This document shows positions 6,995 through 58,738 of a stretch of 64,000 nucleotides of DNA, piece after piece. Origin of the DNA: Kalaharituber pfeilii (taxonomy: Eukaryota > Ascomycota > Pezizomycetes > Pezizales > Pezizaceae); assembly GCA_015179045.1 (NCBI GenBank), contig WHUZ01000100.1, positions 62,001 through 126,000 on the forward strand, in the 5' to 3' direction. The first letter of the stretch is position 1; each line of letters opens with the position of its first letter. Below the pieces are notes generated by a model. It was not told the DNA's origin and searched no databases. It saw nothing but the letters and a program-made list of their open reading frames with translations. The position numbers were made by a program, and so were the translations under genes.

Positions 6995-7055
6995 CCCTGC
7001 CATAGGCTGATAGCCTGTATGCGGGGTTACGTGAATAAAAAAAAAAAAAAAAAAA
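6995..7055 (+). mobile_element. family B retroposon, B-II type
   Basis: It starts CCCTGCCATAGGCTG, contains the small stem AGGCT/AGCCT, ends GCGGGGTTACGTGAAT and carries an A19 tail (7037-7055). I see no clear target-site duplication. It lies 70 bp from the tRNA-Gln gene, which is on the opposite strand. Confidence 0.65.
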
Positions 7056-7116
7056 GCAAAGGAAGCCACGAGGCCTGCAAGAATCGCAAAAAAAGAGAAC
7101 CTTGACAGCAGAAGAG

Positions 7117-7121
7117 AAAAA
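7117..7121 (-). terminator. Pol III T-run terminator of the tRNA gene
   Basis: Five T residues on the minus strand begin 4 nt after the tRNA 3' end, as expected for RNA polymerase III termination. Confidence 0.7.
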
Positions 7122-7125
7122 GAAA

Positions 7126-7195
7126 GGTCGGACTGGGAGTCGAACCCAGGTTACGAGAATCAGAATCTCGTGTGCTACCGTTACACCATCCAACC
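7126..7195 (-). tRNA. tRNA-Gln (anticodon CUG)
   Basis: A 70-nt cloverleaf on the minus strand. The acceptor stem GGTTGGA/TCCGACC pairs with one G-U. The D-stem is GTGT/GCAC with loop AACGGTA. The anticodon stem is CGAGA/TCTCG with loop TTCTGAT, anticodon CTG reading CAG. The T-arm is CTGGG-TTCGACT-CCCAG. It has no intron, and the internal A and B boxes are intact. CCA is not encoded, as usual in eukaryotes. Confidence 0.95.
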
Positions 7196-7939
7196 AGTTA
7201 CGGTTAGTTTCAGAAGCTTACATCAAACAGATAATTCTGTCCCACAGAGGGCCAAACCGAGAATATCGCTCTTCAATTATCTCTTACCCAATTATTCATA
7301 CCATCACCCGGGCATCAAGATCTTCTGTAGCCCTGCGCATTGCTGGGGCGGTACTTGTAGATGCCCATCTCTTCTATGAAAAATTCTTGCTGTAGTTATG
7401 TGGCGAGAAACAAGATTCCAATAGCCTCAGGCAATCCAAAGTTTGGGGTTTCAGCAACGTGTCAGAGTCCCCACGACTAGCTGGGGACAAAAGGGAACAA
7501 GTAGCCATGAATTCATTGTCAAGCGTACATGCGATACTTTGTAAACCGCGAAAATGGGTACTACAAATGCTGGCAGCCCCTGTGGCGATGCGACTGAGCC
7601 CTAGACGCACTATCATCTTCGTTCGGGCAGCGGCGAAGAGCGAACTTCCTCCTTCCGAATATAGTGGTGCCGGAACGCAAGAGAGAAGCCCCCTCCCGCT
7701 AGTGCTTCTCTCCTCTTCGTCTTCGTTCCTCTCGTCTCCAGGTTCCCTTCAACGCCCTCCCCCCCTACTACGGCAGCTTTCAAACCATGACTACAATATA
7801 CTGTATATATCAATTCTTGTATACTGTTCTAGAAGCTATGACGAGATCAACTGCATAAGAATGATAGGAAAAAACACAAAAATTAAAATTAAAAACAAAA
7901 TCAAATTGAAATATCAGAATATCAGAACCAAAATATCAA

Positions 7940-8170
7940 AATAGCAACCCGCCACTTGCCCGTCATCTTTCGACCATCTCATCAATTCCACCAGCGGGTC
8001 CGGTCCCTCCTGGGCCCTGGCCATCTTTTCTTCCACACCTCACATCTCGACCAGGTGTATTCTGTTGTTTCCATTCCCGCTGGCATTCCGCACCTCCGCC
8101 TTTCAGCACCTAAACCTCCAGGCTCTCGGGCTTTCCCTGCGCAAAGTGCGCACTAAACTGCCTAGCCTCT
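7940..8170 (-). mobile_element. decayed Tad-like LINE C-terminus
   Basis: Read on the minus strand, one frame gives the C-terminal zinc-finger context of LINE ORF2 (RCGMPAGMETTEYTWSRCEV, then WKKRW), matching better copies in this window. The frame is broken and no hairpin tail follows. Small relic. Confidence 0.35.
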
Positions 8171-8399
8171 GGAGCAGTCATTGCACCTTAAAGACAAACA
8201 AAGTAGGATGACGAGACTATACTAGGACCTTTAATACTTCATTACAGCCATCTTATAGTTCCTTGTTTGTTTTTTTCCCTGATGTGAGCTTTCTACCCGA
8301 ACACTTCGCTCCTTGAAGCCTTCACGGTCCAGCTCACCTGCATCGGCACGAAACCCGCTACAACAGGATCTCTCAGGGGTCTAATTTCTGGATCACAGC

Positions 8400-9082
8400 A
8401 AAAACAAAGGAAAATCCATCTGCGGCAGCATATTGCAGCAGAACAGACCAATATGACGAATATCCAGACGCTAGCCATGGATTATCTTGCGCAAAACATT
8501 CCCTTCTTCGCTGTATTTCTCCTGGAGCAAGCATATGTCATGATAGTTCAAATGTGCCAGATGACCCAGGCCCATTGGTATTACCAGTGGCTCAGCAGAT
8601 GCGCTATTCGTATGCATGCTGAGCACAAGCCCCATGGATGGCAGGAATATGATTACACAGGGGGACGGACCTGGAAAAGCTACTCACCGACATAGTGAAC
8701 CTGCAGAAAGAGAAAGAGACGCTGAAGGGAGAGACAGAGAGGATAAGAATGGAGATGGCACAGGCAGACAAAGTACACCAAGAGTGGTGCCAAACTTTTG
8801 AGAGAAAAACGCTTGCAAAGATACGATCTTGACGTGGACAAGGAACAACGTATTTTGTGGCTAGATAACACTAGTCTCGTGACCAGAACACTGCAGTGCG
8901 TAGGCAAAGTCTTCGGGACTATGCAGTATAAGGAAAAACGTTTTACCAAGCCTTGGAGTCACGAGACATGCATCCGAGAGGACCCCCTTTGGGAAAACAC
9001 AACTCAACCAAAAGTACTCTGTTTTAGATTCTATGATGCCCATTCATGTGGTCTATTAATTTCTTGCAAATTTTCTAGCTAA
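8400..9082 (+). pseudogene. fragments of a coiled-coil gene, structure unresolved
   Basis: Three open stretches have coding-like composition but different frames. At about 8405-8660 there is a hydrophobic/aromatic segment (QNIPFFAVFLLEQAYVMIVQ). After a possible acceptor ACACAG at 8660 comes a clear coiled coil (DLEKLLTDIVNLQKEKETLK, ending at a TGA near 8833). At 8798-9082 there is a third frame (YDLDVDKEQRILWLDNTSL). These may be exons of one lineage-specific gene or remains of one. I could not find splice sites that join them in phase. Confidence 0.3.
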
Positions 9083-12000
9083 ATTTACTTTATTGATTTC
9101 TTAGTGATTTTTCAAACAGTAAGAAAAGAGGTGCAAGGGGTGTCAGCTCGCCATTCATGTCTTGCTATTCTTATCTACGCACTGTAACACCTCTTTACAC
9201 CGTTCGAAATATGTATACTAAATCTACGTACGCAATAGATCACCAAATGACAAGAATGTAAAACTTTTCTTAATTCCTCTACAGCTCCGGACACTATTGT
9301 AAAATGGCGGGATACGACAAGACCGAATTCTTTGATGCTGTATAAGGTTTTCTGAGGCATACATGCATAACACGAAGTTGCATAAAAGCCAATGAACCTA
9401 AGTGTTCGGTCTGCCAAGTATGGAGAGCACACGGCCCGCCTTGGATGCTCGGACTCCATCATTGTCCCCACCGACGTCCGACCGTGCAAGTCAACTCCGT
9501 GATCAACCCGTCATGTCCGGCCGGATATTGCTGCTGATCTCTTGCAGCGCCAGCATGCTCAGGCTGCCAAGCTCGGTCCGTATACCCTAGCTACTGTAAT
9601 TCACCACCAAGCGGGCCACACCGGCAATCGGGACACCTTCATCACCAAAAACTGCACAACTTTTGCACTGAATATCTCAACAACTGCACCAGCATTTTTT
9701 AATGTGTTTCATGTAGGTATTAACCAAAGGGCTATTCTTGCAATCTAGCACTTTTGCCTGCTCAAAAATTGTAGGTGCGAAGGAATTATGGCAGAAACGA
9801 ACACGTGCTGATCCTTTTTATTTTACGTGATTTTATTTTTATTATACCTTTATATTTCATCACTTGCTGAGGCTCACGGAACAGTGATTACTGTGTTCTA
9901 ATGGTGATACAAGTAGAGGTGCTCCCAGGCCATCGTCCACTTTGTCCATGCCCTCATACTACAGCTTTCCCTAGCCAAACTCTAACTGGCACAGCAACCA
10001 AAATATCCTGGGCGATTATTGAAGAAAAGAGAAGTATATCGTGGCTACCACAAAGTAGCTTCACCCTCACCTGATCCCCGTCGCAGTCATAGCAGCCTTG
10101 CCGCTTCATGGGCGGCTGTGTCGTTCATGGGCACCATATGCAGCCGACAGCCGCGCAGTCCATAAGCGTCCCTGCGCTTGAACGTACGCTCGCGGCAAAG
10201 AAATGAGCACAAGTGGCTTGCATCTCAAACTAGTCTGGTTATGTCAAACCGGGCAAAACAGATGACTGAAAGCGTAACCCCAGGCTCCTTGGCTGCAACT
10301 GTTCAGTAGATGCAAGAAAACGCTAGCTAGCTAGTCGCCCGAACCGAGCTAGATGCAGCTTAGTGTTGAGGAACAAAGCGAAGGTGATGAGACAATCAGA
10401 CTCATATCCTTTCGCTTTGGCTACATGTATACAGTCCTGTTTCCCGATTTATCTTTACGAGACAAGATTGGTGTAACTTCTCGGAGAAGGTAACTAGTCA
10501 GTAATCTCTGGTATTAGTACTCTATGCAATACTAATCTGGTTTTAATGCAATACACTCCCACAGAAAGCCAGCAAGAAATTAAAACGGCAGGCAGAAGGT
10601 AATTTCATTTCCAGCCTCATTTCCGGACTAACTTTAATTGTACAGAATGACAGTAGCTAGTAGTGCGCGTGATTCAGCAAATTGGCATTCAGCCGTCCAC
10701 AATCCAACTGCAGCAGGTCCAATGGAACCAACTATCACAGGGTGGAAAGAATGGGAAAGAATGGGAAATGTGGGCCCAAATAGGTGGGGCAAGGATGTGG
10801 ATGGAAACAAGGTCACTGGGCTTTCTTCAGCACCTTGAAGAGGAAAAGGAATCATGTAATTAGGTACAGCGGAGAAAATTTCTTCACACGCTAGGTCCCC
10901 AGGACCCATGGGACTTGTCGTGGCAGCCAACAGCTGTGAGCGACTAAGGATGTCAAAAAATAGATAAAATAAAGTAATAAATAATATTTTACGGAATTCT
11001 CGAAATTTTAAAAATAATAATATCGATAAACCACTTCAGAAACCTACATTGCAGGACTTCTGTCGTAAAGTAGACTATATCAAAAGATGCAGATTGTTGT
11101 TGAATAGGTGCAGTGGCAAAAATGATAACACTTACCTCTATGATTGGCCATGACACTCTAAACGAATAACAATGAACTGCTCCATCTGTGGAATGGCAAT
11201 GAATGTAGCCAACTGAACTTTTTTCTTTGATAGACTTGTGTTTCACTCAAATAATTGGTTAACGAATATTCGAACCTAGTTCTCTTACACATGCAGCTGT
11301 TATGTCTCATTGGGTCCTCTTGTACCGGGGCCACCATATTAAGCACTCCACATTTGACAGTTGACGGCAAGTGATGAACTTGCCCAACATGCAAATGCAT
11401 TTCGGTAAGGTCACCTGAAGCGGGATCGGAATACAACTAAGTAACATTGGCATTATAAAAGGACATTAGGGAAAAGGTACATGCAAGACATGGAATTCGC
11501 AATCTGCTATTTGTTTGCCGGGGGCTGAAAAGTGCATCTCCGTATGTGGTCCGAGCTCGTCTGCAAGTATTGTTTTTAGTTCTGTCCAACTTGTCCGAAA
11601 GTAATCCCGGTAGTTAAGGCGGGACTATAAACCTTGCCGATTCCGTAGTCTCGTGCTCAAATCCCCTGCTATTGTGGCTTGCCGATCCTACTATGTCGAT
11701 CCATTAAGAGTTATCACAATCAGATCGTTGTTGGATTCTGTTGATTGGGCAATTGTAACGGCCATGTGCGACCACAAAGGAATTCAAGCTGCGAATTGCT
11801 CTAGAGTATACTAACAGGTAAATTTATTCTCATACACTTTATCACAATGTACGCCCATGGGATGTACAATTAAACCGGGCGGTTGTCTCAGTGGTTATTA
11901 TTCAGAGAAGTGTGCAAGAATTTCATCTTAAGGTGCAACACTCTAAAGTATTCCTCATGGGTTCAATTGTCACAACGCAATTGTCTTCCCACTACCCATC

Positions 12001-12996: not shown

Positions 12997-13064
12997 CCTG
13001 CCATAGGCTTCTATAGCTTGTATACGGGGTTATATGCACCCCCCCCACCCACAAAAAAAAAAAA
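12997..13064 (+). mobile_element. family B retroposon, diverged B-II type
   Basis: It begins CCTGCCATAGGCTTC, continues TATACGGGGTTATATG, then a C-rich stretch (CACCC) and an A12 tail. The direct repeat is not clear. The extra C-rich segment before the poly(A) is unlike other copies. Confidence 0.5.
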
Positions 13065-13527: not shown

Positions 13528-13588
13528 TCCCTGCCAGAGGCTTGTAGCTAGTATGCGGGGCTATGTGAACCAAAAAGAAAGAAAAATG
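13528..13588 (+). mobile_element. family B retroposon with 14-bp TSD
   Basis: Body TCCCTGCCAGAGGCTTG to TATGCGGGGCTATGTGAA with an A-rich tail. It is flanked by the perfect 14-bp direct repeat AAGCCATAGGCTAA (13514-13527 and 13589-13602). Confidence 0.8.
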
Positions 13589-14561: not shown

Positions 14562-14660
14562 TTTTTTTTTTATATATTAATCGCATTCCGCCCTAAGGGC
14601 TATGGCGATTTAGGTACAAAAGAAATAAATGGAAAGAGAAATAAAGAATTGTATCATAGG
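14562..14660 (-). mobile_element. family A LINE 3' tail copy
   Basis: Minus strand: an A/T-rich segment, then ATCGCCATAGCCC, loop TTA, GGGCGGAATGCGAT, TAATATATA and an A9 tail. The 5' boundary is uncertain and no TSD was located. The closing pair A-T of the outer stem matches at both sides. Confidence 0.6.
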
Positions 14661-14882: not shown

Positions 14883-14913
<31 letters not shown>

Positions 14914-14947
14914 ATAACCCCGCTTGTAGCACTAAGCCATGGCAGGG
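14883..14947 (-). mobile_element. family B retroposon with 14-bp TSD
   Basis: Minus strand: CCCTGCCATGGC to AAGCGGGGTTATGTGATTT with a tail of more than 20 A. It is flanked by TATAAGGTAGCGAA at 14869-14882 and 14948-14961, a perfect 14-bp duplication that includes the abutting base of the element start. Confidence 0.88.
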
Positions 14948-14962
14948 TATAAGGTAGCGAAT

Positions 14963-18525: not shown

Positions 18526-18587
18526 TTCCCTGCCATAGGCTCGTAGTATGTATCCAGGGTTACGTGATTGGGGGGAAAAAAAAAAAG
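18526..18587 (+). mobile_element. family B retroposon (B-II) with 12-bp TSD
   Basis: Body TTCCCTGCCATAGGCTCG to CAGGGTTACGTGATTG, then GGGGG and an A-rich tail. It is flanked by GAATGGAGGAGT at 18514-18525 and 18588-18599. Confidence 0.8.
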
Positions 18588-18722
18588 GAATGGAGGAGTC
18601 TTTCTCGATGTCACAGAATAGTGGGTCCGAGAGGGTTTTAATCTGCCCACACTTGTAGGGGTAGGAACTTGCTGTCGACAACCTTAAGGTTGCAGATAAG
18701 TTTGGTTATAACCTTGTTCCCG

Positions 18723-18781
18723 CCCTGCCATGGCGAACAGCTGCACGCGGGGTCACGTGATATTAAAAAAAAAAAAAAAAA
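18723..18781 (+). mobile_element. family B retroposon (B-I) with 13-bp TSD
   Basis: A near-consensus copy: CCCTGCCATGGCGAACAGC, TGCACGCGGGGTCACGTGAT, ATT, poly(A). It is flanked by AACCTTGTTCCCG at 18710-18722 and 18782-18794. The body starts exactly at the first base after the duplication. Confidence 0.92.
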
Positions 18782-19929: not shown

Positions 19930-20906
19930 GACTGGTCTCTCTTCGGTCGGCGCTGCCATAAGCTACGGTCGATTTTCCTGACCGCAAAGTTGACCCAATA
20001 AGACACATTATCAGATAGGACAGGATCTAATATCAGAGGTTCGACTGTAATGTCCTTGTTTTTGAAAGTGTGCAACCAACATTCGGGCTTACTGGGCATG
20101 CGTATACAGACACCGGAACGCATTTTACTGGAACGGACTTTTTTTCTTTTTAATATCACGTAACCCCGTTTGCAGCTGTTCGCCATGGCAGGGCGGAACG
20201 GACATCAAAGATCGCTTCGACGTGTATGGTTTAAAACATTTCAAAGCTCCACTGTCACATCCATCATCGGTGGGATTGGCGGAACGTTATGTTCTGTTGT
20301 TGGCAGGAGCAATTTCACTGCGATGCATACAAATGGGGACTGAGAAATTGGGGCACCATGGTGGATCCATCAGCTACAGACATCACTACCAGGCATGTAA
20401 AAATTCACGGATACGCTCCGGCAGAAAGCATACTGGAATTTAACTCAAGCAGGAATTGGAAAGAGGATGGAGACATCAGAACTTCTACAGAATTCTGGAA
20501 AAGTTTGGCTTGCAACCGTGAATGACAACACCAGAAGAAGCTGAAGCACTCATAAACTCAAGAAAAGAGAAGGCGTAACAAGCAACTTGAATACAGAAGA
20601 GATAGAAGAGCAGGAAAAACAGGAGGAAGAGTAAGCGGCAATTTGGGGAAACTAAGGGTAGAAGAACTGGTCGTGGTGAGGAGATTTGAAGTGGACAAAA
20701 AGAAGGGAATGAAGTTGGAAGTGAATCGGTCAAGACCAATGAAAGTCGCGAAATATTGGAAGTCAGGAGTAAGCGCATGGGTACAACCATTACATGAAGA
20801 AACTCCACCGAAAAGATATCATGTAAACCACATGAAGGCATATAAGCGTAGGGGGAGAGGAACTGAGAGACGCAGGAGAGGGTATAAAATCGCGGAAGAA
20901 TTGTAG
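19930..20906 (+). mobile_element. Ty3-type retrotransposon integrase relic, split by a family B copy
   Basis: After removing the insertion at 20139-20194 and one TSD copy, the frame reads through the integrase core: the second catalytic Asp context YTDTGTHFTGTD and the Glu context SHPSSVGLAERYV. Further 3', 20643-20906 encodes an integrase C-terminal-like segment (VVVRRFEVDKKKG, then KSGVSAWVQPLHEE, then RYHVNHMKAYKRR). Other parts are frameshifted. No LTRs were recognised. Confidence 0.6.
20139..20194 (-). mobile_element. family B retroposon inside an integrase frame
   Basis: Minus strand: GCCCTGCCATGGCGAACAGC to AAACGGGGTTACGTGATATT, then the A-rich tail. It is flanked by GGAACGGAC at 20130-20138 and 20195-20203. 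Removing it restores the integrase frame, which proves it is an insertion with target-site duplication. Confidence 0.92.
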
Positions 20907-21765: not shown

Positions 21766-21830
21766 TTTTTTTTTTCTTTCTTTTTTATATTTCACGTAAC
21801 CCCTCTTGCAGCTGTTCGCCATGGCAGGGC
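21766..21830 (-). mobile_element. family B retroposon with 10-bp TSD
   Basis: Minus strand: GCCCTGCCATGGCGAACAGC, TGCAAGAGGGGTTACGTGAA, ATAT and an A/G tail. It is flanked by TGAGCTCGAG at 21756-21765 and 21831-21840. Confidence 0.9.
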
Positions 21831-22297
21831 TGAGCTCGAGATCAAGATAAGCCTATATCTTAATCAACTGTACTGACCTTGAGTGAGGAGAACGGTATCG
21901 AGTAATGTTGCTGCTACGTTCCCATAGTATATTCATACCTCGAGATGTTTGGCTGAGATGAGGGTAATAAGATCCCCATTTGGGTCGCGGAATTGGATTG
22001 AATCATACAATGTTTTTCCTCCCAACGCTTTTGAAGCACACTGGGTTATGTGTCCAAGGGAGATAAATTTAGCACTAATATGATGCATATAACATTAATA
22101 AAAAAAAACCAAAAAAACCTACAGCACCAAGGATTCCCACGTGGTCACCCACCGTAGTACTAGCTTGGCGATCTGAAGCTTAGATATGGCAGAGCGGACG
22201 GGATGCCTCGTTTTCTTCAGTCTATGGCCGTAGATGTTATGTATGCAAAAGTTGCAGGTGATATATCGCCAAACACATGCATTGCATCATTACAAAT

Positions 22298-22355
22298 TTT
22301 CTTTTTTTTTTTTTTTTGTCACGTAACCCCGCTTGCAGCTGTTCGTCATGGCAGG
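22298..22355 (-). mobile_element. family B retroposon with 14-bp TSD
   Basis: Minus strand: CCTGCCATGACGAACAGC, TGCAAGCGGGGTTACGTGAC and a tail of about 15 A. It is flanked by GCATCATTACAAAT at 22284-22297 and 22356-22369. One G is shared by element and duplication. Confidence 0.9.
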
Positions 22356-22551
22356 GCATCATTACAAATGTGCCATGGAGCTTGCTGATGAAGGAGTGAT
22401 CAATATCGATACCACTATTATTTGGGGTACCGCTGTTCTATTCCAAGCCAAGCTGTGCATACGCCCATGTGTACGGACTGTAGGCATTGCGGCAAACGAC
22501 GCTAGGTCTGGTTTTGCAACTACAATAGTTCATTGTATTTTTTATTTATTT

Positions 22552-23700: not shown

Positions 23701-24009
23701 CAAAAGTAATGAACGGAGAAAAACAAAACCGGCATAGAACCCACAACCTCTGACAGTAACGTAGGGAGAAAGAGATAACATCAATGCACAACAGAACGTT
23801 GTCCCGCGATCCTCACTAGTCATGTGGAACCATCCGAGAACTCGAGTATGCAAAATTCACTTCACCAGTTGAGGTGTCCTATCCCCTCATACTGGTGGTA
23901 CTTCAGCCATTTCCCTCTTAATCTCACTCTCGCTGGTTTTGAATCTGCCTGAGCTCCGGGTGAACTTTGCTCCTCTAGGTATATCACAACCGTTTGAGCT
24001 TATTGATGG

Positions 24010-24046
24010 CCCTGCCTTGGCGAACAGCTGCATGCGGGGTCACGTG

Positions 24047-24080
<34 letters not shown>
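24010..24080 (+). mobile_element. family B retroposon with 14-bp TSD and long poly(A)
   Basis: CCCTGCCTTGGCGAACAGC, TGCATGCGGGGTCACGTG, then about 33 A. It is flanked by GAGCTTATTGATGG at 23996-24009 and 24081-24094. The long uninterrupted tail suggests a recent insertion. Confidence 0.93.
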
Positions 24081-29429: not shown

Positions 29430-30660
29430 TTCGTTGCTAACACATCAACCCAGCGTTAAGAAAGAGGCCCCGAGCATCCAATAGAAATGCCGGGAAAAAA
29501 GAGACACGTCCTCCCCGTCCCCAACGGGAGCCCTCACCACGGAGGGATGAAGACATAAATGACGAACTGGAGGCACTGAGATGCAGGGACCTGGAGGCGC
29601 AGATAGCCAGGAGAAGGGACCCCCGCCAGTTCCCTCCCGAAGTCGCGGTTTGTCCTCGGGGACCTACCCCCCATCCCAAAGTTCGTCCCCAAAAAGGCGC
29701 CCACACTGGGGTTCAGCCCCATCACCACCATACACACGACACCAGTGGAACCCACTCCCGAAGCCCTAGGCTTCAGCACAATAGTCACGGTGCATTCGGA
29801 GGAGCCATCCCAGAACAAAGCACAGAGACCACACCAACCCCCGGAGTCACGCCGACACCCATCCCGGGGCCCGCAACCAAGAAGCGAAAAGGCAAGATGG
29901 CGTCAGCTCAAGACCCGTACGCCTTCAAGCGACGGCTCAGCGACAAGGAGGCAAAGAAATTGCCACTGCACCCACGGGCCCCCACCAGAAAAACAAACCC
30001 AGGTGCGACCCCAGTCACCCAACACGCTGACAGCACCCCCGTTGGCACCACCCCCCACCAAACGCACCCCCCACCAAACGCACCCCCCACCAAACGCACC
30101 CCCCACCAAACGCACCCCCCACCAAACGCGCCCCCTCGCCCCCGCGCTCGGGGCAAAGGAAGCGACGAGGAGAAAAGCGCCCCTCCAACCAAGCCCACCG
30201 CTGCCACCACCACTACAAAGTCCGGCATCGTGGTACACGGCATAGCCCTGAGAAAGAACTTGGAAAATGTCCGAAAATGGCTGGAATCAGCCAACAAAGG
30301 CTTGGGACAAGTTGTTGGGATCCGATGGCTGAAGAAAAAAAAAGAGATTCTCGTCGAGGAGAGGAAGCTCACCAGCTCGGTTGTAATATACTTGGAGGAG
30401 CGAATCGAGCCTACACCAGGTAGGGTGAGACTGGGAGGAAAATGGCCAAAGTCATGCGAGTATGAATGGGACAGAAGACGGACTTGACCGGCTTAAGCCT
30501 TTTCCTTTTTCCTTAGCCTGTAATACAGAGACAGCCATGGGCAGCACAGGAGACGGAATTTTTCGGGGTTGTTTCCTTGTATTTCTAATGTACCTTAAAT
30601 CGCCGTAGCTCTTAGGGCGGCATACGATTAATGATATTAATAAAAAAAAAATAAAAAAAA
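29430..30660 (+). mobile_element. LINE derivative with ORF1 and 3' tail but no ORF2
   Basis: One frame is open from about 29430 to the stop at 30487 (first ATG in the later part at 29897). It encodes a coiled-coil-like start (DELEALRCRDLEAQIARRRD), a low-complexity middle and a C-terminal segment (KSGIVVHGIALRKNLENVRK, then SSVVIYLEERIEPTPGRVRL) typical of RNA-binding ORF1 of Tad-type LINEs. Only about 110 bp later comes the family A hairpin (ATCGCCGTAGCTC ... GGGCGGCATACGAT) and an A/T tail. The reverse transcriptase region is missing, so this is an internally deleted, non-autonomous copy. No TSD was found. Confidence 0.6.
30048..30128 (+). repeat. 16-bp minisatellite inside LINE ORF1
   Basis: About five copies of a 16-bp unit (ACCAAACGCACCCCCC). 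Because 16 is not a multiple of three, the unit is read in all three frames and gives a 16-residue protein period (PPNAPPTKRTPHQTH-like). Confidence 0.85.
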
Positions 30661-32015: not shown

Positions 32016-35000
32016 TCATTTCCGAGCACCATGCTGACGCAGTAATGTCACCACATCCCTATGCTTTTCTGCAGCTGCCCATGATAGTGGCGTTCGACCA
32101 TCCTTGTCCTTTGAGTTTATATCCACTTTACCTTGCTCAAGCAGTAACTTCACTACATTCAGCTTGCCGTTCCTTGTTGCCCATGACAGTGGCGTTCGAC
32201 CATCCTTGTCCTTTGAGTCTATATCCACTTTGTCTTGCTCAAGCAGTAACTTCACTACCTCCGGCTTGCTATCAGCCCATTGATACGCTGCTGCTGCCCA
32301 TGATAGTGGCGTTCGACCATCCTTGTCCTTTGAGTTTATATCTACTTTGTCTTGCTCAAGCAGTAACTTCACTACTTCCGGCTTGCCATACCATGTTGCT
32401 CCTGCCCATGACAATGGCGTTCGACCATTATTGTCCTTTGAGTCTATATCCACTTTGTCTTGCTCAAGCAGTAACTTTACTACCTCCAGCTTACCGTTCT
32501 CTGCTGCCCGTGACAGTGGCGTTCGACCATAATTGTCCTTTGAGTCTATATCCACTTTGTCTTGCTCAAGCAGTAACTTCACTACCTCCAGCTTGCCATT
32601 CGCTGCTGCCGTCAACAGTGGCGTTCCTCCATAATCGTTCTTTGAGTCTATATCCACTTTGTCTTGCCCAAGCAGTAACTTCACTACCTCCAGCCAGCCG
32701 TTCCCTGCTGCCCGTGACAGTGGCGTTTCACCATCATTGTCCTTTGAGTTTATATCCACTTTGTCTTGCTCAAGCAGTAACTTCACTACCTCCAGCTTGC
32801 CATTCGCTGCTGCCGTCAACAGTGGCGTTCCTCCATAATCGTTCTTTGAGTCTATATCCACTTTGTCTTGCCCAAGCAGTAACTTCACTACCTCCAGCCA
32901 GCCGTTCCCTGCTGCCCGTGACAGTGGCGTTTCACCATCATTGTCCTTTGAGTTTATATCCACTTTGTCTTGCTCAAGCAGTAACTTCACTACCTCCAGC
33001 TTGCCATTCCATGCTGCCCATGACAGTGGCGTTCGACTATCCCTGTCCTTTGAGTCTATATCCACTTTGTCTTGCTCAAGCAGTAACTTCACTACCTCCA
33101 GCTTGCCGTTCCCTGCTGCCCATGACAGTAGCGTTCGACCATCATTGTCCTTTGAGTTTATACCCACTTTGTCTTGCTTAAGCAGTAACTTCACTACCTC
33201 CAGCCAGCCGTTCCCTGCTGCGCTTGACACTATATCTCGACTATAAGGGTCCTTTGAGTTTATATCCACTTTGTCTTGCTCAAGCAGTAACTGCACGATA
33301 GTCTCACGGCCACCATACACTCCCCATGATAGAGGCGTCATGGGTCTCGGCCAGGGATCCTGTGGATTTTCGGACCGGTGATTGAGTGTAGCTTTATATC
33401 CTCGCTTATAATTACGGGAAAGGTTGAGGTAGTTCCGTTTCGGCGCCCTCCAACTGAGGATTAGTGATACGACTGCCTCATGACCATTTTGTATCGCAGT
33501 TATCAATGGCGTGCGGCCCCAGCGGTCCTTAGAGTTCACATCGATATCAGGTTGCTGCAGGAGCAGGCTAACAACATCTTTGTACCCATACTCGCATGCG
33601 ACTCCTAGTGGTGATTGCAAATCAGGATGACCTTTATCATTTACATCTTGGCCACTTTGAAGAAGCGAGGTCATGAGGGCCATTACCCCAAACTGTGCAG
33701 CCACATGAAGGCGAGAAAACGGAATTGGGAACTTTGTCAAGACTATCTTAGATATGGAGTAGGATTGGTACTTCTTGGCTTGGTACTTCGCTAGATATTG
33801 AACTGCACAGGACGAGGTGTGTAGGCGGGACAATTCAAGGGCAAGAACTTCAACAGCGGCATTGGTCCCATGCTCTGCTTCACGGGCATGGTGGCCCCAT
33901 TGCAAGGCCGCATATGGTAGGAATTTGAACTTGGCCTCAAAATGATCCATTTCATCGGCTGACTTGAGATGAGCGCGCAGTGGATCCAGGCTTAGGTATC
34001 TTAAGCAAGTCAGGGCGAGACAATTCTGGCTATCCGGAAAGTGCGTACTGTGGTTTTCCATCAGATATTCCTGCAAGGAGAAATGGACAAAACGCAATAC
34101 AGTTGTCTTAGTTTCAACAACAACAAGGCCATAGCAGGACTCGATGATTGTCGTTGCAGAGGGGGCATTCTTTTCAAGAGTCTCAAGCGTTGTACTTTTC
34201 CCATTTACCGCCAGCGCATGCCCTAAAACGTCCACTGGGATTGGTGTCCGAGCAAAAAAGGTCCACATTAACACCTTCATTCCAAGCTCAGCTAGAGCAC
34301 GATTCGAGGAGTGCCGTATCCTAGCGATGATAGCGTTATATACTTCGAAGAGATTTCTAGGTAATGTGTCAAGGGCTTCATGTCTTTTCCATACTGTCAT
34401 TTGTTGCATGACCGTGTCGATGTGAAAGGATGCTAAAAGGAACCTGTTTTCATTAGTATTTGCCATTATCAAAGTGAAAGATTGAAAGAGACATACATTC
34501 CAGCTGACTTTCGAGGTATTGTGTCTATAATCTTCTGCCTCAGCTGGCTGTCCATTGCTTGAGGTCGGGGGTCGCTTTCAAGTTGATGAGTAACATATGC
34601 GCGAATGTCATTCTCATTTGCTGTAATATCTAGTACAATAGGTGAGGCTTTGAGTGTTTGAGTAATTTGCTCCTTGACATTTGGTCGTGCAGTAAGGAAT
34701 AAGCGAAGCTGAGAACCCGAATGGTCAGGTGAATGGAATATTTCTTTGATGGTATGGAGAAGTGACATGCGGGTTCGTTCCTCCAGTTCATCTAGGGCAT
34801 CAATACAAAGAAAACATGGTTCGAGCACTTTCAGCAAAAGCTTCATCATATCTTTGGCATGCTGCAAGTCCAGGTGAACTTCATCCTTGGTAGCTTCCTT
34901 TAAGCTATCAAATATAGCCTTGGATGCTTTGTCGGAAGCCAGACCCCTAAGAAGTTGCTTGATGAAACTTCCGATAATATTGAGGATTACTTGATCCTTT

Positions 35001-42669: not shown

Positions 42670-45600
42670 TTATTCGTTGGCATTGGCGGAACTTCCGTGA
42701 GATGTTCGCTCCCTCAATTTCTGTGCCTGATCAGAGTGCCCGATTTTGCCGAGTAAAGTGGCCATGTAATTGATTGTAGCAAGGGTATCTGGGTGGTCTA
42801 AACCCAGTACCTTGTGTCTTCCAACCAATGCCCGCTGAGAGTACTCTAGTGCTTTGTCGTACTGTCCCATAGCCTCGTATAAAGCAGCAATGTTGTTGAC
42901 TATAGTAAGTGTGTCTAGGTGTTCTGTGCCAGTGCCTTTTCTGCTCCGACCAATGCTTGCTGACAGTACTCTAGTGCTTGTCATGCTGTCCATATCTTGA
43001 ATACACTGCCAATGTTGTGGACTGTAGTAAGAGTGCCTGGGTGTTGTGTGCCCAGTGCTTTTCACGTCCAACCAATGCTCGCTGAAAGTACTCAAGTGCT
43101 TTGTCATGCTGTCCCATATCTTGAAATAAAGCGGTAATGTTGTTGACTGTAGTAAGAGTGGTTGGGGGTTCTGTGCCAGTGCCTTTCGCGTCCAACCAAT
43201 GCTTGCTGACAGTACTCTAGTGCTTGTCATGCTGTCCCATATCTTTGAATACACTGCCAATGTTGTGACTGTAGTAAGAGTGTCTGGGTGTTCTGTGCCT
43301 AGTGCCTTTTCGCATCCAACCAATGCTCGCTGAAAGTACTCAAGTGCTTTGTTATGCTGTCCCATATCTTGAAATAAAGCGGCAATGTTGTTGACTGTAG
43401 TAAGGGTGTCTGGGTGTTCTGTGCCCAGTGCCTTTTCACGTCCAACCAATGCTCGCTGATAGTACTCTAGTGCTTTGTCATACTGTCCATACTGAATAAA
43501 CGCAATTTATTGACTGTAGTAAGAGTGTTGGGTGTTCTGTGCCAGTGCCTTTTCGCGTCCAACCAATGCTCGCTGAAAGTACTCAGTGCTTTGTCATGCT
43601 GTCCCATATCTTGAAATAAAGCGGCAATGTTGTTGACTGTAGTAAGGGTGTTTGGGTGTTCTGTGCCTAGTGCCTTTTCCTTCCAACCAATGCTCGCTGA
43701 GAGTACTCCAGTGCTTTGTCATACTGTCCCATATCTTGGAATAAACAGCAATGTTGTTGACTATAGTAAGGTGTTGGGTGTTCTGTGCCTAGTGCCTTTT
43801 CGCATCCAACCAATGCTCGCTGAAAGTACTCAGTGCTTTGTCATACTGTCCATATCTTGGAATAAAATGGCAATGTTGTTGACTACAGTAAGAGTGTCTG
43901 GGTGTTCTGTACCTAGTCCCTTTTCGCATCCAACCAATGCTCGCTGAAAGTACTCTAGTGCTTTGTCATGCTGTCCATATTTTGGAATAAATTGGCAATG
44001 TTATTGACTACAGTAAGAGTGTCTGGGTGTTCTGTGCCCAATGCCTTTTCCCTCGCAACTAATGCTCGCTGGTAGTACTCGAGTGCTTTGTCATACTGTC
44101 CCATAGCATCGAATAAAAGAGCAAGATTGTTGACTGTAGCCAGGGTGTCTGAGTGTTCTGTACCCAGTGTCTTTTCTTCTCTAGCTAGTACAAGCTTATA
44201 CATTTCTTCGGCCTTCCCATAATAACCATGCCTTTCATAAACTGCACCCAGATTGTCCACTGCCATTAGTACTCCTGGTTTCCAATTGGCAGAGTGTTTG
44301 CATGCTTTTCTAGAGCGATAATATGTGGCAAAATCCGCCGCTCAAAAATCCAGTCTGCCACTTCACGCTTGTTGTCAGGAACAGCAATTGCAGATGTAAC
44401 AACAAGCAATGCCTCAGTGGCTTTGTTATTACATCTTTCGGGTTCGGCGTTTAGTTTCCATTGAGCCCACTTATGAACTATGGGGTGGATACTGAAGCTA
44501 TCATCTCTATCTTTCCGCTTCACCATTGAGTATGAAAATAGTACCCGAATTGAGTCTTTTCAAGCTTGCAGTCTGTAGTAAGGTGAGAACACGTATCATT
44601 AGCTTATAGTGCTTTACTAGAAGATAGTTGTACATACCATTCATTGGCAATTTCATTCCTCGCTGCAGCAACTCCTCACAAATGTCATTATTGTCAAGAA
44701 ACCCACATAATAACAACAACTCTGCAGCATTCGCATTTTGTTCCTGGATTGCATTGAATGACAAATCCCAGGCAGCAAAGACAGCTCTGTCATGGGTTCC
44801 AAGTTTCCATTCCGTGCTCAAGAGGTAAGTAACCTTATTCTCATACTCACTGAGATAGCGACTAAAAGAAGAGTCCAAAGCATAGATACATGCTCCAGCC
44901 TGGTCTATCGCAAGTGGCAAGTATCCAAGTTTTTCGACAATTGTTGCAGCAGCCTCTTTCTCATGCTCACAATCTATGTACTTCATGTTAATATGGAATT
45001 GGAATCACGCTGTAGTGAGGTTCACTTACCGCCCTCAGTCACTTTCTCAAAATCCCGCTTTGCGCTCTTCAAGAGTAATTCTTCTGCCTCAAGCTTCGTC
45101 ATTTGGTCCACCTCTATCCATCCTCGCCCATGAACACTCTCACGTCTTCTGCTTGTAATAATCACAGTCCCATACGATGATGATGGAATATAGTTGTTAA
45201 TATCAAAAGATCTTAGATCGTCAAGGTTGTCGAATACAAGGAGCCATTTGGTGTTGTCTTTTGCAGCGAACCATTCCTTTACAGCATCAACAACATATTG
45301 CTCTTCACTTGGGTCCTGTACGGTAAACAATCCCACTGAATTGAGTTTGCCGGCCATGCCCAGTAGTCGGCCAATATGCATGTAGTCAGGCTCGCCACAG
45401 AGTTTGGCATGGTGCTTGATAAGTTGCTGCATGATGGAAGTGAAACCAAGTTTCATAGTCTGTTCACTAGCTGCATTGATCCAGAATACCGCTGAGTAAT
45501 CTCCATGATGGCGGTAAGCATATTCCAATGCAAGCTGGGTCTTCCCCACACCACCCATTCCATAAAGTACTACCAGGATGACCTTCTTTGTGGTCGCACC

Positions 45601-46437
45601 CTCTATTTTTTGCTTTAGCTGTTCGAGAAGATGTTCCCTTCCAACGAAATCAGAATTCCGTTGAAAATTAGGAAGGCTGAAGGGAATGTCGAAGGATAAG
45701 TGTAATAATTTCCTCTCGGACAACCTAGGAATGGTGGCATTAGGAGGCAATACGTTGAAGAGACCATCGATATATTTTGTTAGCTGGCCCACTAACTCAT
45801 GACACCTTGCTTTGTCTGAGCTGGCCCAGCGCAGCTTGCGGTATGCAGATACAGATTGCTGCACATTTTGTACAGCCCTTCCGAGGCAAGCAATTTCTTC
45901 CTCAAGCGCTGGAAGGAGTTGTGTATTGGAGAAGATCTTTGGATCTTCCAACAGGCGAAGATCACTAGAACTGATACTAGGAATTGAAAGCTGTGGGCTA
46001 GGACTTGTAGCTCGACCAGGTTTGGTCTTCCCTGGGCTTGGAGATTTAGACCGGAACTTTGACAATAGACGCCCAACTCCAAGACTGTCGCGTTTTGCAC
46101 TCTTGTCATCCTTCTGTGGTTCGCTTTGGTATCTTGCTTGCAATGCAGCAAGCTTTGCAAACACAGCAATTATCCTCGCTAGACCAGCTACTGCATATCT
46201 ATACCGTTCATCGTCAGGCTCAATGCGTTGGTGTTGCTGGCTGGTGCCATCGAGCCCCCAGGCATGCTCCCAATGCTTCAGCCGAAGTCCTTGCTCCCGG
46301 AGATCGTGCAACACCGAGTCTTGTGCATAGCCGATTTCCTTCATGTCGGAAAATATGTTTGTGCACTCTCGACTGAGTTGAACCAATTGTCCAGCCAGTC
46401 CGACGATTCCGATGGCAAAGCCTGCTGCTTCCGTCAT
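42670..46437 (-). pseudogene. HeLo-like/NB-ARC/TPR STAND protein with frameshifted TPR array
   Basis: Exons 46437-45030, 44973-44638 and 44555 onward are in phase (56-bp and 82-bp introns). The N-terminus (TEAAGFAIGIVGLAGQLVQL) is HeLo-like, the fungal domain that can permeabilise membranes when its NLR is triggered (family knowledge). NB-ARC follows: GREHLLEQL, Walker A GMGGVGKTQ near residue 293, Walker B LLVFDNLDD near 399, TVIITSRRRE, and the winged-helix part HPIVHKWAQW. The start is the second Met of the open frame, because it matches the usual HeLo start. A one-base loss near 44268 shifts the frame at the first TPR, and most of the 12 following TPR units have lost 1-9 bases. The last unit and C-terminus (LREREQ-like end at 42670) are in frame again. 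Either a decayed gene or uncorrected sequencing error. Confidence 0.8.
42825..44190 (-). repeat. TPR-coding tandem array, about 12 units of about 126 bp
   Basis: Unit starts (CCAATG or its equivalent) lie at 42825, 42950, 43072, 43196, 43320, 43446, 43563, 43687, 43810, 43934, 44059 and 44185. Spacings are 125, 122, 124, 124, 126, 117, 124, 123, 124, 125 and 126. A full unit is 126 bp (42 residues; DTLTTVNNIAALFQDMGQ, KALEYFQRALVG). Several losses fall in short homopolymers, for example CCC to CC in the CTGTCCCATA segment. Confidence 0.85.
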
Positions 46438-47108
46438 GATTGTGATGGAGACAAAGGAGTCTAATTCTGAATTAGTTATTGTGATCAGTCTCATCTAGTA
46501 CATGAGTGAAAAAAATATCAACCGACGAATATTGAGCTTTTACTACTTACTGTCGCGTGTCAAATTTAATTTTGGACAACACTATTTCAGTCTCAACGAG
46601 CTTAAGAACTGTTCGGAAGCGAGATATACTGTATCTGAAGATTGGAAAATAGGTTTTGTACGGTATAAATTCCGTTTTAAAGGTACCAGAAAAGAAGAGG
46701 GTATTTCAGAGACAGCGATACGATACTTCTGACTCATCATTTTTCGACTGCGGCTGAATTGTATGCATTCTAACAAGTTAGACTTAGCTACGTGCATATG
46801 TGTATTGCAGGATGTTCTACTTCCGATTTAACTGTACGGTGTGAGGCACAGCCTGTTAGTGCAAATGCAATAAGTTGGGGAACCCAAAGCGACATATGTG
46901 TGTAACGGTAGCGTTACTACGAGTAGGTACTGTAATTCAGGTGTGGATGTAACCATACCCCGAAAATTATTCAGCTTTCAAGAGCATAGTGAAACGCGGG
47001 CCAAAGCACGAAAGGTTAATATGAAGCGTTTAGGGTGATACTTGGGTCGACTCAGACGTTAGGCGGAATCGCCTATAATACATTGGTCTTTGTATGATAC
47101 TCTACTCG
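46438..47108. other. upstream region of the NB-ARC-TPR gene, no gene seen
   Basis: Nothing beyond short ORFs. It should contain the NLR promoter. Confidence 0.4.
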
Positions 47109-54992: not shown

Positions 54993-55252
54993 GTTTGTAT
55001 TTGAAAGATCATACAGAGAGGGAAAGAGGAGACTATTCTTTTGAAGCATGGGAGAATAGTAGGTACGGTGCGAAAAATAGGTTCGGAGTCAAATGGAAAA
55101 TGGGTGGATCTGTTCTCGTACCCAGCCTACAGAGACCGGTTGCCAAGCCGAATATTTCTTGCAACCTGTCTCTTGGTCTGGAACTAAAGTAGCCCGCATG
55201 CCAGAAAACTAGTCACCCGACGTCGGGTTGCCACCCCGACCCGCGGGTAGAC

Positions 55253-55680
55253 TTTTTGTATTTATTTCATTACTCGCATGCCGCCTGACAGGCTATGGCG
55301 AGAGATTAAGTACATAATGAGCAGAAGGGAGAATATGGGAGAATAGTAAAAGACAAAATGAAATGTAACCCGATGTTAAAGGAAAACTACTCCACTCCTT
55401 CGCATCCCGGCAAGCAAACTTCCCCGACGGCAAATTTTTACCCGACCCGGGTCGGTAAATCGCACGGCGCACTAAAACCTGATCCCGGAGAAGAACCTTT
55501 CCAACTCATCCCACTCCTCCCCATTCTCTGCTGTCCTTTTCCAGTTCTTCTCCATATCCCCCCATTCTCTAAAGCCTTCTGGGCGAAACCTCTGCTGACT
55601 GCACTGGAGGGCTAGGTGCTCCCCCGTCTGGGCCTCCCCGCAGCTGCACTTCTCCGATTCCGCCGCCAAGGGCATCTAAG
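55253..55680 (-). mobile_element. family A LINE 3' end with zinc motif
   Basis: Minus strand: a C-terminal zinc motif (CSCGEAQTGEHLALQC), 3' region, CTCGCCATAGCCT, loop GTC, AGGCGGCATGCGAG, TAATGAAAT and an A/T tail. The inner stem is GCCT/AGGC rather than GCCC/GGGC. No TSD assigned. Confidence 0.65.
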
Positions 55681-55743
55681 CCACCACATTCCAATCTTTT
55701 AATCAATTCTCTTATCACTAGTTCACTTGGGCTCTTAGTCACA

Positions 55744-57452
55744 ATGACCGAAAATGCTGGTACAGCTCCAGAAGAGCTCTATCAGAAGTCTACTTTCGCC
55801 TGCAATCTTCATGCTCTTGCAACTATCAAATCTATTCAGGAGCTTAACCACCACAACCTGAGACCTCTCAACACATACTTTGGGCGGGAGACTGTCCCTG
55901 AAGATGTTGAAAAGCATCTCACTCTTCTGGATGCTATCTCACTGCTACTCGTTGCCCGCCGAAGATCTGATGTTGCTGCAGTTGGCCTTTTCGTTGGTAA
56001 CAAGGGATTCCCTGCTTGATATTATGCAAAGAATGCTCCATGCATGCACCGATACAGAGAAAGCGCATGTTAACTCAATAGTATCTTTTATTAAAAACGT
56101 GGCTGATAAAAAGATACGAAGGCAAAAGTGGCAGAAGAATTGGTCCAACTTGTTTTGCCTTTCTGCAAAGAAAAAGTGTGGCAGAGGTTGAAAAAGCTGC
56201 AGCAACAGTTAAGGGGCAACGGGTGGGATGGACTAGATTCCAATGAATTCCGTGCGAAAGTTTGTGAAACGTTTGACTATTCACCTGCAGCAACGAAGTT
56301 TCTCGATGATTTGTTGAGCACAATAAAAGGACTGAAGTCATTTCCTGATAACGTTCGGAAATTTCTTCAAAAAATATTAGTATTCGATTCCTTTACAATG
56401 GAGAACGACACTGGGAAATTGTTCATTCTTTCCTACGTTGCATCAAGCATTGTAAGTGCCAATCATCATCACGCATGGTATACCTAACACTCAGATTAGT
56501 ACCCCGCCATAGCCCATAGGGCGGCATGCGAGTAATGATATAAAAAAAAAAATCAGATTAGTGCAATACTTTAGCAGAGTAAGGTGGCTATTTTCTGATA
56601 GGTTTTCTAAGGGCGATGCACTTTGCCATGGGCCAGGAGGGCAATGTATGGACCAGACCCTACAGCGGCGAATCAACAAGTTCGGAGATTACTTTACAAG
56701 TGTCGCTCTGATTTCATTGTGGGGAACCGACAAAACACCACATGTGCAATACCAGCGTCAGGTCTTCACAATGGAAGAGGTAGCTTTCTCCCCAAGCATT
56801 TAACCTCAATAACGTGCTAACGCCGAATCCACAGGTGCCAGATATTCCTCAGCCAATTCCTGCGAGAGTGCCAACGGATTATCTCACGATTGTGAACCTA
56901 TACACGCAGAGAAACTCGCAGAAGCCATGCGACGGGGTTCCAATCACCCGCTCAGCCCTCCGGGCTCAATTCCCCACATTCAATGGATTGCCCGAAGTAG
57001 AGCCTCCTTATACCTCCATATCTACACTCGAGGAGTCAGTCCACTGTGAATGCAGTGTAGCTATGCATATCCGATCTCTACTCGTGGACAAGAACTTTAC
57101 TAATACACCTCATATCAAAATTGGGGTCTCTAAACAAAGCTGTCTCCTCTGCCATGAATTCCTTTTAGCGCTAAATTCCAATGACTCTGAACACTATACT
57201 CGTCCCGTTTACCTAACATCTGGGTGTGATAGGAAGGTGCCATCAACCTGGCGGGCACCATCTGGTGCCCCCCAGGCTTGTATACGGCGAGTGGAGGAAC
57301 GCGTTCAGGTTGGTTTAGACTCCATTATACATTTGGCAAGGAATCGCCGCAGGAGCGATTCAGCTGAATTGAGGACGCCAAAATATATTGCGACGAAGGA
57401 ATGCCTGACTGACGAGTCGGGAGACAATGCAGTCTTTGATGACACTGATTGA
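55744..57452 (+). CDS. OTT_1508-type deaminase-domain protein, multi-exon
   Basis: Start ATG 55744. The last exon, 56835-57452, is secure: the preceding 55-bp intron (56780-56834) has a GCTAAC branch and CACAG acceptor. It encodes the OTT_1508-like deaminase core: the zinc-binding HCE in ESVHCECSVAMHIRSLL and C-x2-C in KIGVSKQSCLLCHEFLLAL. These residues would hold zinc for deamination of a base or nucleoside; the substrate is unknown for this fungal family. Upstream exons are helical (ELVQLVLPFCKEKVWQRLKK). An intron begins at 56452 (GTAAGT); its acceptor is ambiguous (56577 or 56611), and it contains a 52-bp retroposon. Joins between about 55990 and 56130 are also unresolved, so the N-terminal half is approximate or could be broken. 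Confidence 0.7.
56501..56552 (+). mobile_element. family A micro-insertion (52 bp) inside a gene intron
   Basis: CCCGCCATAGCCC, loop ATA, GGGCGGCATGCGAG, TAATGATAT and poly(A). It is flanked by TCAGATTAGT at 56491-56500 and 56553-56562. It lies about 10 bp after the intron's CCTAAC branch candidate and before the acceptor. Confidence 0.9.
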
Positions 57453-58077
57453 TTAGCTTATGTTTTTATTTTTATTATTTTTATTTTTTAATTTTTTTAT
57501 TTTTATTGTGCCGTTGGTCAACTTCTTGTTGCTCATTATACTTTGTCCATGAATTAATGGTGTCGGTCATTGCTTCTTCCTGTGTCTGCTGTGCTTCTTG
57601 TAATTGTATTTTTAAAGTTGGCCTCGTGCATGAATTTCCTTTTATTTTTTATTTTATTTTTGAAGGTAAGTGCTGTGAAAAGAGATAAGCAATGGACCTT
57701 CAGGTGCGATTCGATCTTCACATTCATCAACCATCTTTTGATTGGATCAATCCAGCTCCCGCCGAAACTCTTGAGGTCTTCTCTTATCGGGAAGCCCTTC
57801 CCTTTCTTTCCACCCGAGTGCGTCCTCTTCCTTATTCATAAAGCCACTTCAATAATGGGCCTTCCCCATCCTGGGCCCTGCATGCTCTGCTCACCCCCTT
57901 GATAACACCTCACCAGGCTCAACTGTCTGCGCAACGACACGAACCGCTCCCTTTCTTCTCCAGACACAGTTGCATCTCTCACATTCGTTCCTTATGCCGA
58001 TCTTTTCTTCTCTGGTATATCCACTCCTCCCATAGAATTTCGGCATTCTCTATTATCTTCTTCAACCTCTTTCAATT
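57453..58077. other. 3' flank of the deaminase gene, no gene seen
   Basis: T-rich sequence likely to include the 3' untranslated region, then pyrimidine-rich DNA with short ORFs only. Confidence 0.4.
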
Positions 58078-58090
58078 GACCTCTCACCCT

Positions 58091-58133
58091 ACAGGGCGGC
58101 ATGCGAGTAAAGATATATATATAAAAAAAAAGA
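58091..58133 (+). mobile_element. shortest family A micro-insertion (43 bp) with 13-bp TSD
   Basis: Only the 3' half of the LINE hairpin is present (ACAGGGCGGCATGCGAG, TAAAGATAT, AT/A tail), between perfect direct repeats GACCTCTCACCCT at 58078-58090 and 58134-58146. About 20 bp of LINE-specific sequence is left. Confidence 0.85.
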
Positions 58134-58665
58134 GACCTCTCACCCTGTTCGACTCTTCCTCTCCTAATCCCCTTCTCAATCGTTTCGTCCCTTCCATTCT
58201 CTTCTTCTTTCATTCCTTCTCCTAATCTTGATGAGAAGATGTGCACAAATCGACTGCTATACACGTGGAAGGATCTATTTGCTACAAGTCAGAACGAGAT
58301 GCCCAAAACAGGCCTGGTAGTTTGTTTGATATCTACGTATCGAGGGGCAAAACCACGTCGAACAAAGAACCAGATTTGGACAGAAGAGGTGATATGGCAG
58401 CGAGAGGACTCTATATCAGTTCACATATAAAGTGCGGAAGATGGCAATACTTAAAACTTTCCCATCTTATATTCATGCTTACGAGATTGTATATGCATCA
58501 TTCACACCTTCATTATATCTCCATGCTGTCACTTACCTAAGTACCCATGAGTAGCCCTATAACTCTACTGTATATCTTTGAATATCCCATATATAGAACC
58601 TGATGTGTATTCTATTCTGCCACTAGTATTATTAAACAAATATAGCTATTATGTAGTGGATGTAG

Positions 58666-58667
<2 letters not shown>

Positions 58668-58700
<33 letters not shown>

Positions 58701-58738
58701 TTCACGTAACCCTGCTTGCAGCTGTTTGCCATGGTAGG
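58668..58738 (-). mobile_element. family B retroposon (B-I)
   Basis: Minus strand: CCTACCATGGCAAACAGC, TGCAAGCAGGGTTACGTGAA, ATATT and about 28 A. No clear TSD. Long tail. Confidence 0.75.

What the first reader, a model, noticed from the sequence alone, without database searches (positions are those of the whole stretch)
6995..58738. Family B: an ultra-short poly(A) retroposon with a body of about 45 bp
Eleven copies (6995, 12997, 13528, 14883, 18526, 18723, 20139, 21766, 22298, 24010, 58668) begin at or within two bases of CCCTGCC and end GCGGGGTTACGTGA plus poly(A). Eight have clear TSDs of 9-14 bp. A constant 5' end means these are full-length units, not random truncations. That is far shorter than the usual SINE (100 bp or more), and no Pol III A/B boxes are visible. 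Two subtypes occur (GGCGAACAGC and ATAGGCT cores). I do not know a described family like this.
Basis: partly seen in the sequence, partly recalled or inferred. Interest (0 to 1): 0.88.

Follow-up and report, generated by a model that had tools for sequence, protein, structure and literature searches.

The report
Forty-base LINE-tail hairpin retroposons
In a desert-truffle genome, hundreds of tiny inserts appear to carry only the last 40 or so bases of larger jumping genes, and those checked nearly all begin at the very same base, at the foot of a predicted hairpin, which likely means that shortened RNA fragments are being copied back into the genome.

Summary
The units are real, but they are not a stand-alone SINE family. 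They are the last ~40 bases plus poly(A) of several LINE families of Kalaharituber pfeilii (desert truffle). Of the 11 listed copies, 8 have target-site duplications (TSDs) of 9-15 bp. Copy 6995 is the end of a longer LINE fragment: RNase H coding sequence lies just upstream. The sharp 5' end still holds: 42 of 43 TSD-bounded short copies start one base before CCCTGCC, at the foot of a predicted stem, and that base follows the family (G, A or T). Two more sites fit the rule: AAGCC (78-bp copies of one family) and TCGCC (the unrelated LINE tail X). In a family-blind scan, 30-59 bp is the commonest insert length. Pol III boxes are at chance level. Best explanation: the LINE machinery copies 3' RNA fragments whose 5' end is set at a hairpin foot (inferred). 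Main rival: the reverse transcriptase stops there. The commonest short haplotype was absent from the 66 long copies examined, so a short-only source is not excluded.

The parts
6994..7034 (+). T-type LINE 3' tail; NOT ultra-short, it ends a longer LINE fragment
   Evidence: RNase H C-terminal coding at 6824-6907, 28/28 residues identical to another copy; long-form upstream sequence; no TSD found
6824..6907 (+). End of the LINE RNase H coding region upstream of the 6994 tail
   Evidence: tblastn, 100% over 28 aa
12996..13037 (+). Diverged T-type tail, short or degraded; no TSD found
13528..13568 (+). Short T-type tail copy, 14-bp TSD AAGCCATAGGCTAA
   Evidence: TSD read by eye; dropped by the script's tail filter
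14910..14948 (-). Short C-type tail copy (first base A shared with the TSD), 15-bp TSD
18527..18567 (+). Short T-type tail copy, 12-bp TSD
18722..18760 (+). Short GAACAGC tail copy (CACGC/TCACGTGA haplotype), 13-bp TSD
20156..20194 (-). Short GAACAGC tail copy, 9-bp TSD
21792..21830 (-). Short GAACAGC tail copy, 10-bp TSD
22319..22357 (-). Short GAACAGC tail copy, 14-bp TSD
24009..24047 (+). Short GAACAGC tail copy, 14-bp TSD
58702..58740 (-). GAACAGC-like tail copy, no TSD found
1950..1990 (+). Short family X tail copy (starts 3 nt before TCGCC), 14-bp TSD
56501..56541 (+). Short family X tail copy, 10-bp TSD
58091..58122 (+). Family X tail copy that starts inside the predicted hairpin, 13-bp TSD

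Best explanation
The ~40-bp units are copies of just the 3'-terminal tail, a predicted hairpin, and the poly(A) of several LINE retrotransposon families of Kalaharituber pfeilii, and they likely arise when the LINE machinery reverse-transcribes 3' RNA fragments whose 5' end has been set at the foot of that hairpin. Shown: 3' ends shared with longer LINE copies, the same TSD length and A-tail in short and long copies, and sharp 5' ends at three sites, to the single nucleotide at the main one. Predicted: the hairpins. Inferred: that a discrete RNA fragment exists, left where 5'-to-3' decay, a cleavage, or protection by the bound LINE protein stops at the stem, and that it is the template for target-primed reverse transcription. 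No RNA was examined.
For: Identity: long copies with the same tail carry RNase H coding sequence (T 13 of 16, C 6 of 15, G 7 of 25) or ORF1-like sequence (A 24 of 26) within 420 nt upstream (Pfam RNase_H for one T and one C protein). Precision: 42 of 43 short copies start at the base before CCCTGCC; that base is A in 6 of 6 C-type, G in 34 of 35 GAACAGC-type and T in the one T-type copy of that set, so it is templated by the family. Up to 3 untemplated bases (19 once) may precede it, and TSD/element overlap is at chance (10 of 42). Same rule at other sites: 7 of 8 TSD-bounded G-family copies fetched start at AAGCC or its variant ATGCT, and 8 of 29 family X copies start 0-3 nt before TCGCC where 0.13 are expected. 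In predicted folds the first base of the short body is paired in 60 of 64 A, C and G parents and in 22 of 27 X parents; upstream of X there is no notable structure (mean MFE -4.5, z 0.07), so an upstream hairpin cannot be what stops an enzyme there. TSD median 13 bp in both short and long copies, A-runs alike (18 and 21).
Against: No RNA evidence. Hairpins are predicted only: the stem is nearly invariant and shows no covariation, and body folding z-scores against mononucleotide shuffles are modest (-1.3 to -2.8). In the T family the first base is unpaired in 15 of 16. Four of 29 X copies start inside the hairpin. The short share does not follow predicted stability: T, the most stable, has 6 of 21 not in long form, GAACAGC 34 of 54, C 4 of 18. 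In A, C and G parents there is predicted pairing 5-8 nt upstream of the end, which leaves room for a reverse-transcriptase stop. Simple hairpins do not usually block Xrn1-type exonucleases (recall).
Confidence: 0.45

Rival explanations
1. Strong stop: the LINE reverse transcriptase starts on full-length LINE RNA but stops or falls off just after copying the terminal hairpin, so abortive inserts share one 5' end.
For: A fungal LINE has a precedent: template switching of Magnaporthe MGL occurs at exactly repeated positions, with hairpins predicted immediately upstream (PMC2104539, passages). In A, C and G parents pairing is predicted 5-8 nt upstream of the end. Long copies join without much microhomology too, so junctions do not separate the models.
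Against: The MGL motif GCC*A/U is not what lies at these ends (sequence). Family X has no structure upstream. No hairpin with its 3' edge just before AAGCC was evident in the folds (read by eye).
Confidence: 0.33
2. Own source: some short copies come from short RNAs made by short-only source loci, or from a start site inside the LINE 3' end, that is, an ultra-short SINE-like element that began as a LINE tail.
For: The commonest short haplotype (CACGC with TCACGTGA) was in 7 short and 2 unclear copies and in 0 of 66 long copies. Of CAY-type tails genome-wide only 61 of 437 have AGGGR in front, against 274 of 800 for the overlapping ATGG CAN set.
Against: A- and B-box matches are at chance level. 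Other short haplotypes are shared with long copies. C-type shorts carry the A of their LINE parents, so short copies arose more than once. The long-copy sample is small and partly chosen, and the genome-wide count for this haplotype could not be obtained (and later, unanswered).
Confidence: 0.15
3. Ordinary random 5' truncation of LINEs.
For: Long copies do have scattered 5' ends, from 64 to 890 nt upstream of the anchor.
Against: 21 of 45 TSD-bounded B copies lie at 24-33 nt where 0.5 are expected; 8 of 29 X copies at 15-18 nt where 0.13 are expected; single-base precision.
Confidence: 0.02

Closest known systems
Stringent-type LINE 3' tails with a stem-loop bound by the LINE protein (ZfL2-1, ZfL2-2, UnaL2; PMC4176376, passages)
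   Same: A short predicted stem-loop at the 3' end of the LINE, shared by several elements
   Different: Here the tail alone, without any upstream sequence, is found as inserts with a fixed 5' end; recognition by the LINE protein is not tested
Fungal SINEs that mimic a LINE 3' end (Mg-SINE with MGL in Magnaporthe; PMC2104539, passages)
   Same: Non-autonomous poly(A)/LINE-tail retroposon likely moved by a LINE with the same 3' end
   Different: Far shorter, no SINE head, no Pol III promoter; the sequence is the LINE's own tail
Site-specific template switching by MGL (MINE chimeras; PMC2104539, passages)
   Same: Reverse transcription by a fungal LINE ends at exactly repeated template positions
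   Different: There a second RNA is joined on; here the tail is inserted alone (one copy, L022:2890, has 19 extra bases), at the foot of the terminal hairpin, and the motif differs
HAL1-type half-LINEs (recalled from mammals)
   Same: The A family is an element with ORF1-like sequence next to the LINE tail (24 of 26 long copies)
   Different: The short copies carry no ORF; whether A copies lack ORF2 throughout was not established

Membership tests
SINE | Short non-autonomous unit with TSDs and an A-rich or LINE-like tail | tested here: met
   TSDs and tails
SINE | Internal Pol III promoter (A and B boxes) | tested here: not met
   Best matches no better than shuffles in 8 of 8 subtypes (smallest P 0.126)
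SINE | Head derived from tRNA, 7SL or 5S RNA | tested here: not met
   Rfam at gathering scores finds only the 5S gene and one tRNA in the window, at none of the copies
5'-truncated LINE copy | 3' end identical to that of a LINE | tested here: met
   Same tails on copies with RNase H or ORF1-like sequence upstream
5'-truncated LINE copy | Variable 5' end | tested here: not met
   42 of 43 short copies start at one base; it is met by the long copies
Stringent-type LINE tail | Stem-loop at the 3' end | tested here: inconclusive
   Predicted fold but no covariation
Stringent-type LINE tail | LINE protein needs this stem-loop to retrotranspose | not testable with these tools
   Needs a retrotransposition or binding assay
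Tad1-clade LINE | Reverse transcriptase followed by RNase H, fungal host | tested here: inconclusive
   RNase_H Pfam hits on T and C proteins; RVT_1 seen only on the related LINE in L014; C RNase H matches the L014-type LINE in the window at about 35%
Tad1-clade LINE | Placement in an RT phylogeny | not tested
   No reference set used; the clade name is recalled

The most novel reading that the evidence does not exclude
A promoter-less retroposon defined by RNA folding instead of by a promoter: any transcript that carries the hairpin and its A-tract is cut back to the stem foot, so the same 40-nt (one-hairpin) or 78-nt (three-hairpin) unit is regenerated from LINEs and from its own copies alike, which would make it about the smallest mobile unit with a self-restoring 5' end.
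Probability: 0.2. Interest if true: 0.88.

Novelty: new variant of a known kind. Interest (0 to 1): 0.64.

Why it matters
It would show that the minimal template of a LINE machine can be about 40 nt, and that RNA decay or folding can set a mobile element's 5' end. It offers a natural record, at single-base resolution, of which RNA ends a LINE machine copies. Inserts this small are easily missed by repeat finders, so other genomes may hold many unseen; in the 264 kb scanned here, 30-59 bp is the commonest length class of TSD-flanked poly(A) inserts (19 of 42).

Tried and rejected
Random truncation: rejected for the short peak. Pol III SINE: no A/B boxes beyond chance. Ends set by microhomology: overlap is at chance; long copies also show little microhomology, so this does not separate the fragment and strong-stop models. 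A cap-derived G as first base: rejected, since C-type copies carry A in 6 of 6. Covariation of the stem: none to be seen. Predicted stability as the cause of the short share: not supported. HDV-like ribozyme at the 5' end: considered from recall only (the body seems too small), not tested. Repeat-induced point mutation as a cause of the long/short imbalance: the two indices of long copies (0.77 and 1.34 for B, 0.80 and 1.29 for X) are close to the window's (0.85 and 1.23); not pursued.

Limits of the counts: the copy finder allows 3 substitutions in a 12-13 base anchor and requires A6 within 40 nt downstream, so copies with interrupted tails, such as 13528, were dropped. L001-L008 and L029-L048 were taken around exact 14-mer hits, L009-L028 were placed mostly around such hits, L049-L068 were taken for the G family and L069-L108 for exact GAACAGC tails; only the window is unchosen. 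In one search, two of 44 rows were not among the 42: L025:6770 (a family X copy, left out) and L016:9094 (starts two or three bases inside; counted as the one miss in 43). In one search a TSD was found for 57 of 121 copies and for 8 of 121 mismatched pairs, so some TSDs of long copies are chance. The family-blind scan looks at most 600 bases upstream. (556 long-form C tails, 769 exact C tails) use patterns of different reach and were not turned into a ratio.
Full report
Where this is. The window is positions 62001-126000 of contig C3 in a 78-Mb, 360-contig assembly. A LINE protein from the assembly gave four database hits, all named Kalaharituber pfeilii, two of them on contigs of 1,541,133 and 210,946 bases, which are the lengths of C2 and C3 here. 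The organism is thus taken to be the desert truffle K. pfeilii, Pezizales.

The observation. The 11 listed places are real. Eight have TSDs of 9-15 bp. Copy 6995 gives the answer away: directly upstream (6824-6907) lies the end of an RNase H coding region, 28 of 28 residues identical to that of another LINE copy. The 14-mer GCGGGGTTACGTGA occurs 1211 times genome-wide and 0 times reversed.

What the units are. With the 3' end as anchor, and TSDs found without using the body, copies in 49 loci fall into two groups (TSD found for 57 of 121, against 8 of 121 mismatched pairs). One group has its 5' ends 24-33 nt upstream of the anchor, the other has scattered ends up to 890 nt. The long copies belong to at least four families with the same kind of terminal ~40 bases: T and C with RNase H coding sequence, G with C-like RNase H, and A with ORF1-like sequence next to the tail (within 420 nt: T 13 of 16, C 6 of 15, G 7 of 25, A 24 of 26). 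Pfam finds RNase_H in one T and one C protein; the reverse-transcriptase domain was seen only in a related LINE in L014. So the short units are LINE tails, not a separate family.

The sharp end. Among copies with a TSD score of at least 10, 21 of 45 lie in a 10-nt interval where 0.5 are expected. At base level, 42 of 43 short copies start one base before CCCTGCC. That base is A in 6 of 6 C-type copies, G in 34 of 35 GAACAGC-type copies and T in the one T-type copy of that set, as in the respective long families, so it is templated. Zero to three untemplated bases (19 once) may precede it. In 10 of 42 the TSD overlaps the element by one or two bases, the chance value.

Two more sites with the same rule. 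In family G a second class of about 78 bp starts at AAGCC or its variant ATGCT: 7 of 8 TSD-bounded copies among the 20 fetched for that family. Family X, an unrelated LINE tail (TCGCCATAGCCCATAGGGCGGCATGCGA...), has 8 of 29 TSD-bounded copies starting 0-3 nt before TCGCC, where 0.13 are expected. At all three sites the start is at, or within three bases of, the 5' foot of a predicted hairpin. Against strictness, four X copies start inside the hairpin.

How common. A scan blind to family, for A-runs with flanking repeats of at least 11 bp in 264 kb, gave 42 inserts (reversed control 4). Nineteen have bodies of 30-59 bases, 6 of them in the window; 18 of the 19 are B or X tails and one (L009) is a low-complexity match. 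The 200 kb outside the window were placed mostly around B hits, so the B share is inflated there. Genome-wide, 526 of 800 exact GAACAGC tails lack the AGGGR that precedes the tail in long copies; diverged long copies may be among them.

Mechanism. Short and long copies share TSD length and A-tail, so the same LINE machinery likely inserts both. Two models explain the fixed end. In the first, favoured here, RNA is cut or trimmed back to the stem foot and the fragment is copied to its end. In the second, the enzyme stops there on long RNA. For the first: the end falls at a stem foot at three sites, and X has no notable structure upstream that could stall an enzyme. For the second: in A, C and G parents pairing is predicted 5-8 nt upstream of the end, and a fungal LINE, MGL of Magnaporthe, switches template at exactly repeated positions with hairpins predicted just upstream (PMC2104539, passages). 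Untemplated bases fit either; the R2 reverse transcriptase needs such additions for template jumping (PMC8857657, abstract). The hairpins are predicted only: the stem is nearly invariant, so there is no covariation to count, and the short share does not follow predicted stability.

A loose end that may be the most interesting part. The commonest short haplotype (CACGC with TCACGTGA) was in 7 short and 2 unclear copies but in none of the 66 long ones examined, and 61 of 437 CAY-type tails have AGGGR in front. Either its LINE parent makes mostly short copies, or short copies give rise to short copies. The second would be possible without a promoter if the hairpin itself sets the end of whatever transcript contains it.

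Known relatives. LINE 3' tails with a stem-loop recognised by the LINE protein are known (PMC4176376, passages), and so are fungal SINEs that mimic a LINE tail (Mg-SINE; PMC2104539, passages). Fungal SINEs of tRNA and 5S type are known from Aspergillus fumigatus (PMC5063351, search listing and start of abstract only). Ten paper searches were run: nine on mobile-element terms (one search found nothing) and one on the genus (17 papers, listing only). None of the listings shown described tail-only inserts of this size, but most subscription papers are not held and the lists were capped.

Noticed in passing
window 1950-1990 +, 56501-56541 +, 58091-58122 +; other X tails with anchors at 14593, 16480, 17184, 19276, 21330, 23611, 30615, 31213: Family X: an unrelated LINE tail (TCGCCATAGCCCATAGGGCGGCATGCGAGTAATGATATT plus poly(A)) with the same habit of tail-only copies; some copies start inside the hairpin.
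   Followed up: partly
window 29441-30487 +: ORF1-like LINE protein without a Pfam match, followed by an X-type tail at 30615.
   Followed up: partly
L012, L016, L026, L028 and others (A family): Elements with ORF1-like sequence running up to about 220 nt from the LINE tail (24 of 26 long A copies): possibly half-LINEs.
   Followed up: partly
L022:2890 +: A short copy with 19 extra bases of unknown origin between TSD and element, which still starts at the same base.
   Followed up: no
L010:8196-8245 - and a near-identical arrangement in L006: Two tail copies back to back, one without CCCTGCC, probably a nested insertion that was duplicated.
   Followed up: no
window 22116-22235 - and 7125-7195 -: A 5S rRNA gene and a tRNA-Gln gene, each within about 100 bp of one of the tail copies (22319 and 6994).
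   Followed up: no
window 32016-34577 -, 42670-46494 -, 60059-62788 -: Long ankyrin-repeat, tetratricopeptide-like and NB-ARC-like ORFs (domain names from reading the sequence, not searched).
   Followed up: no
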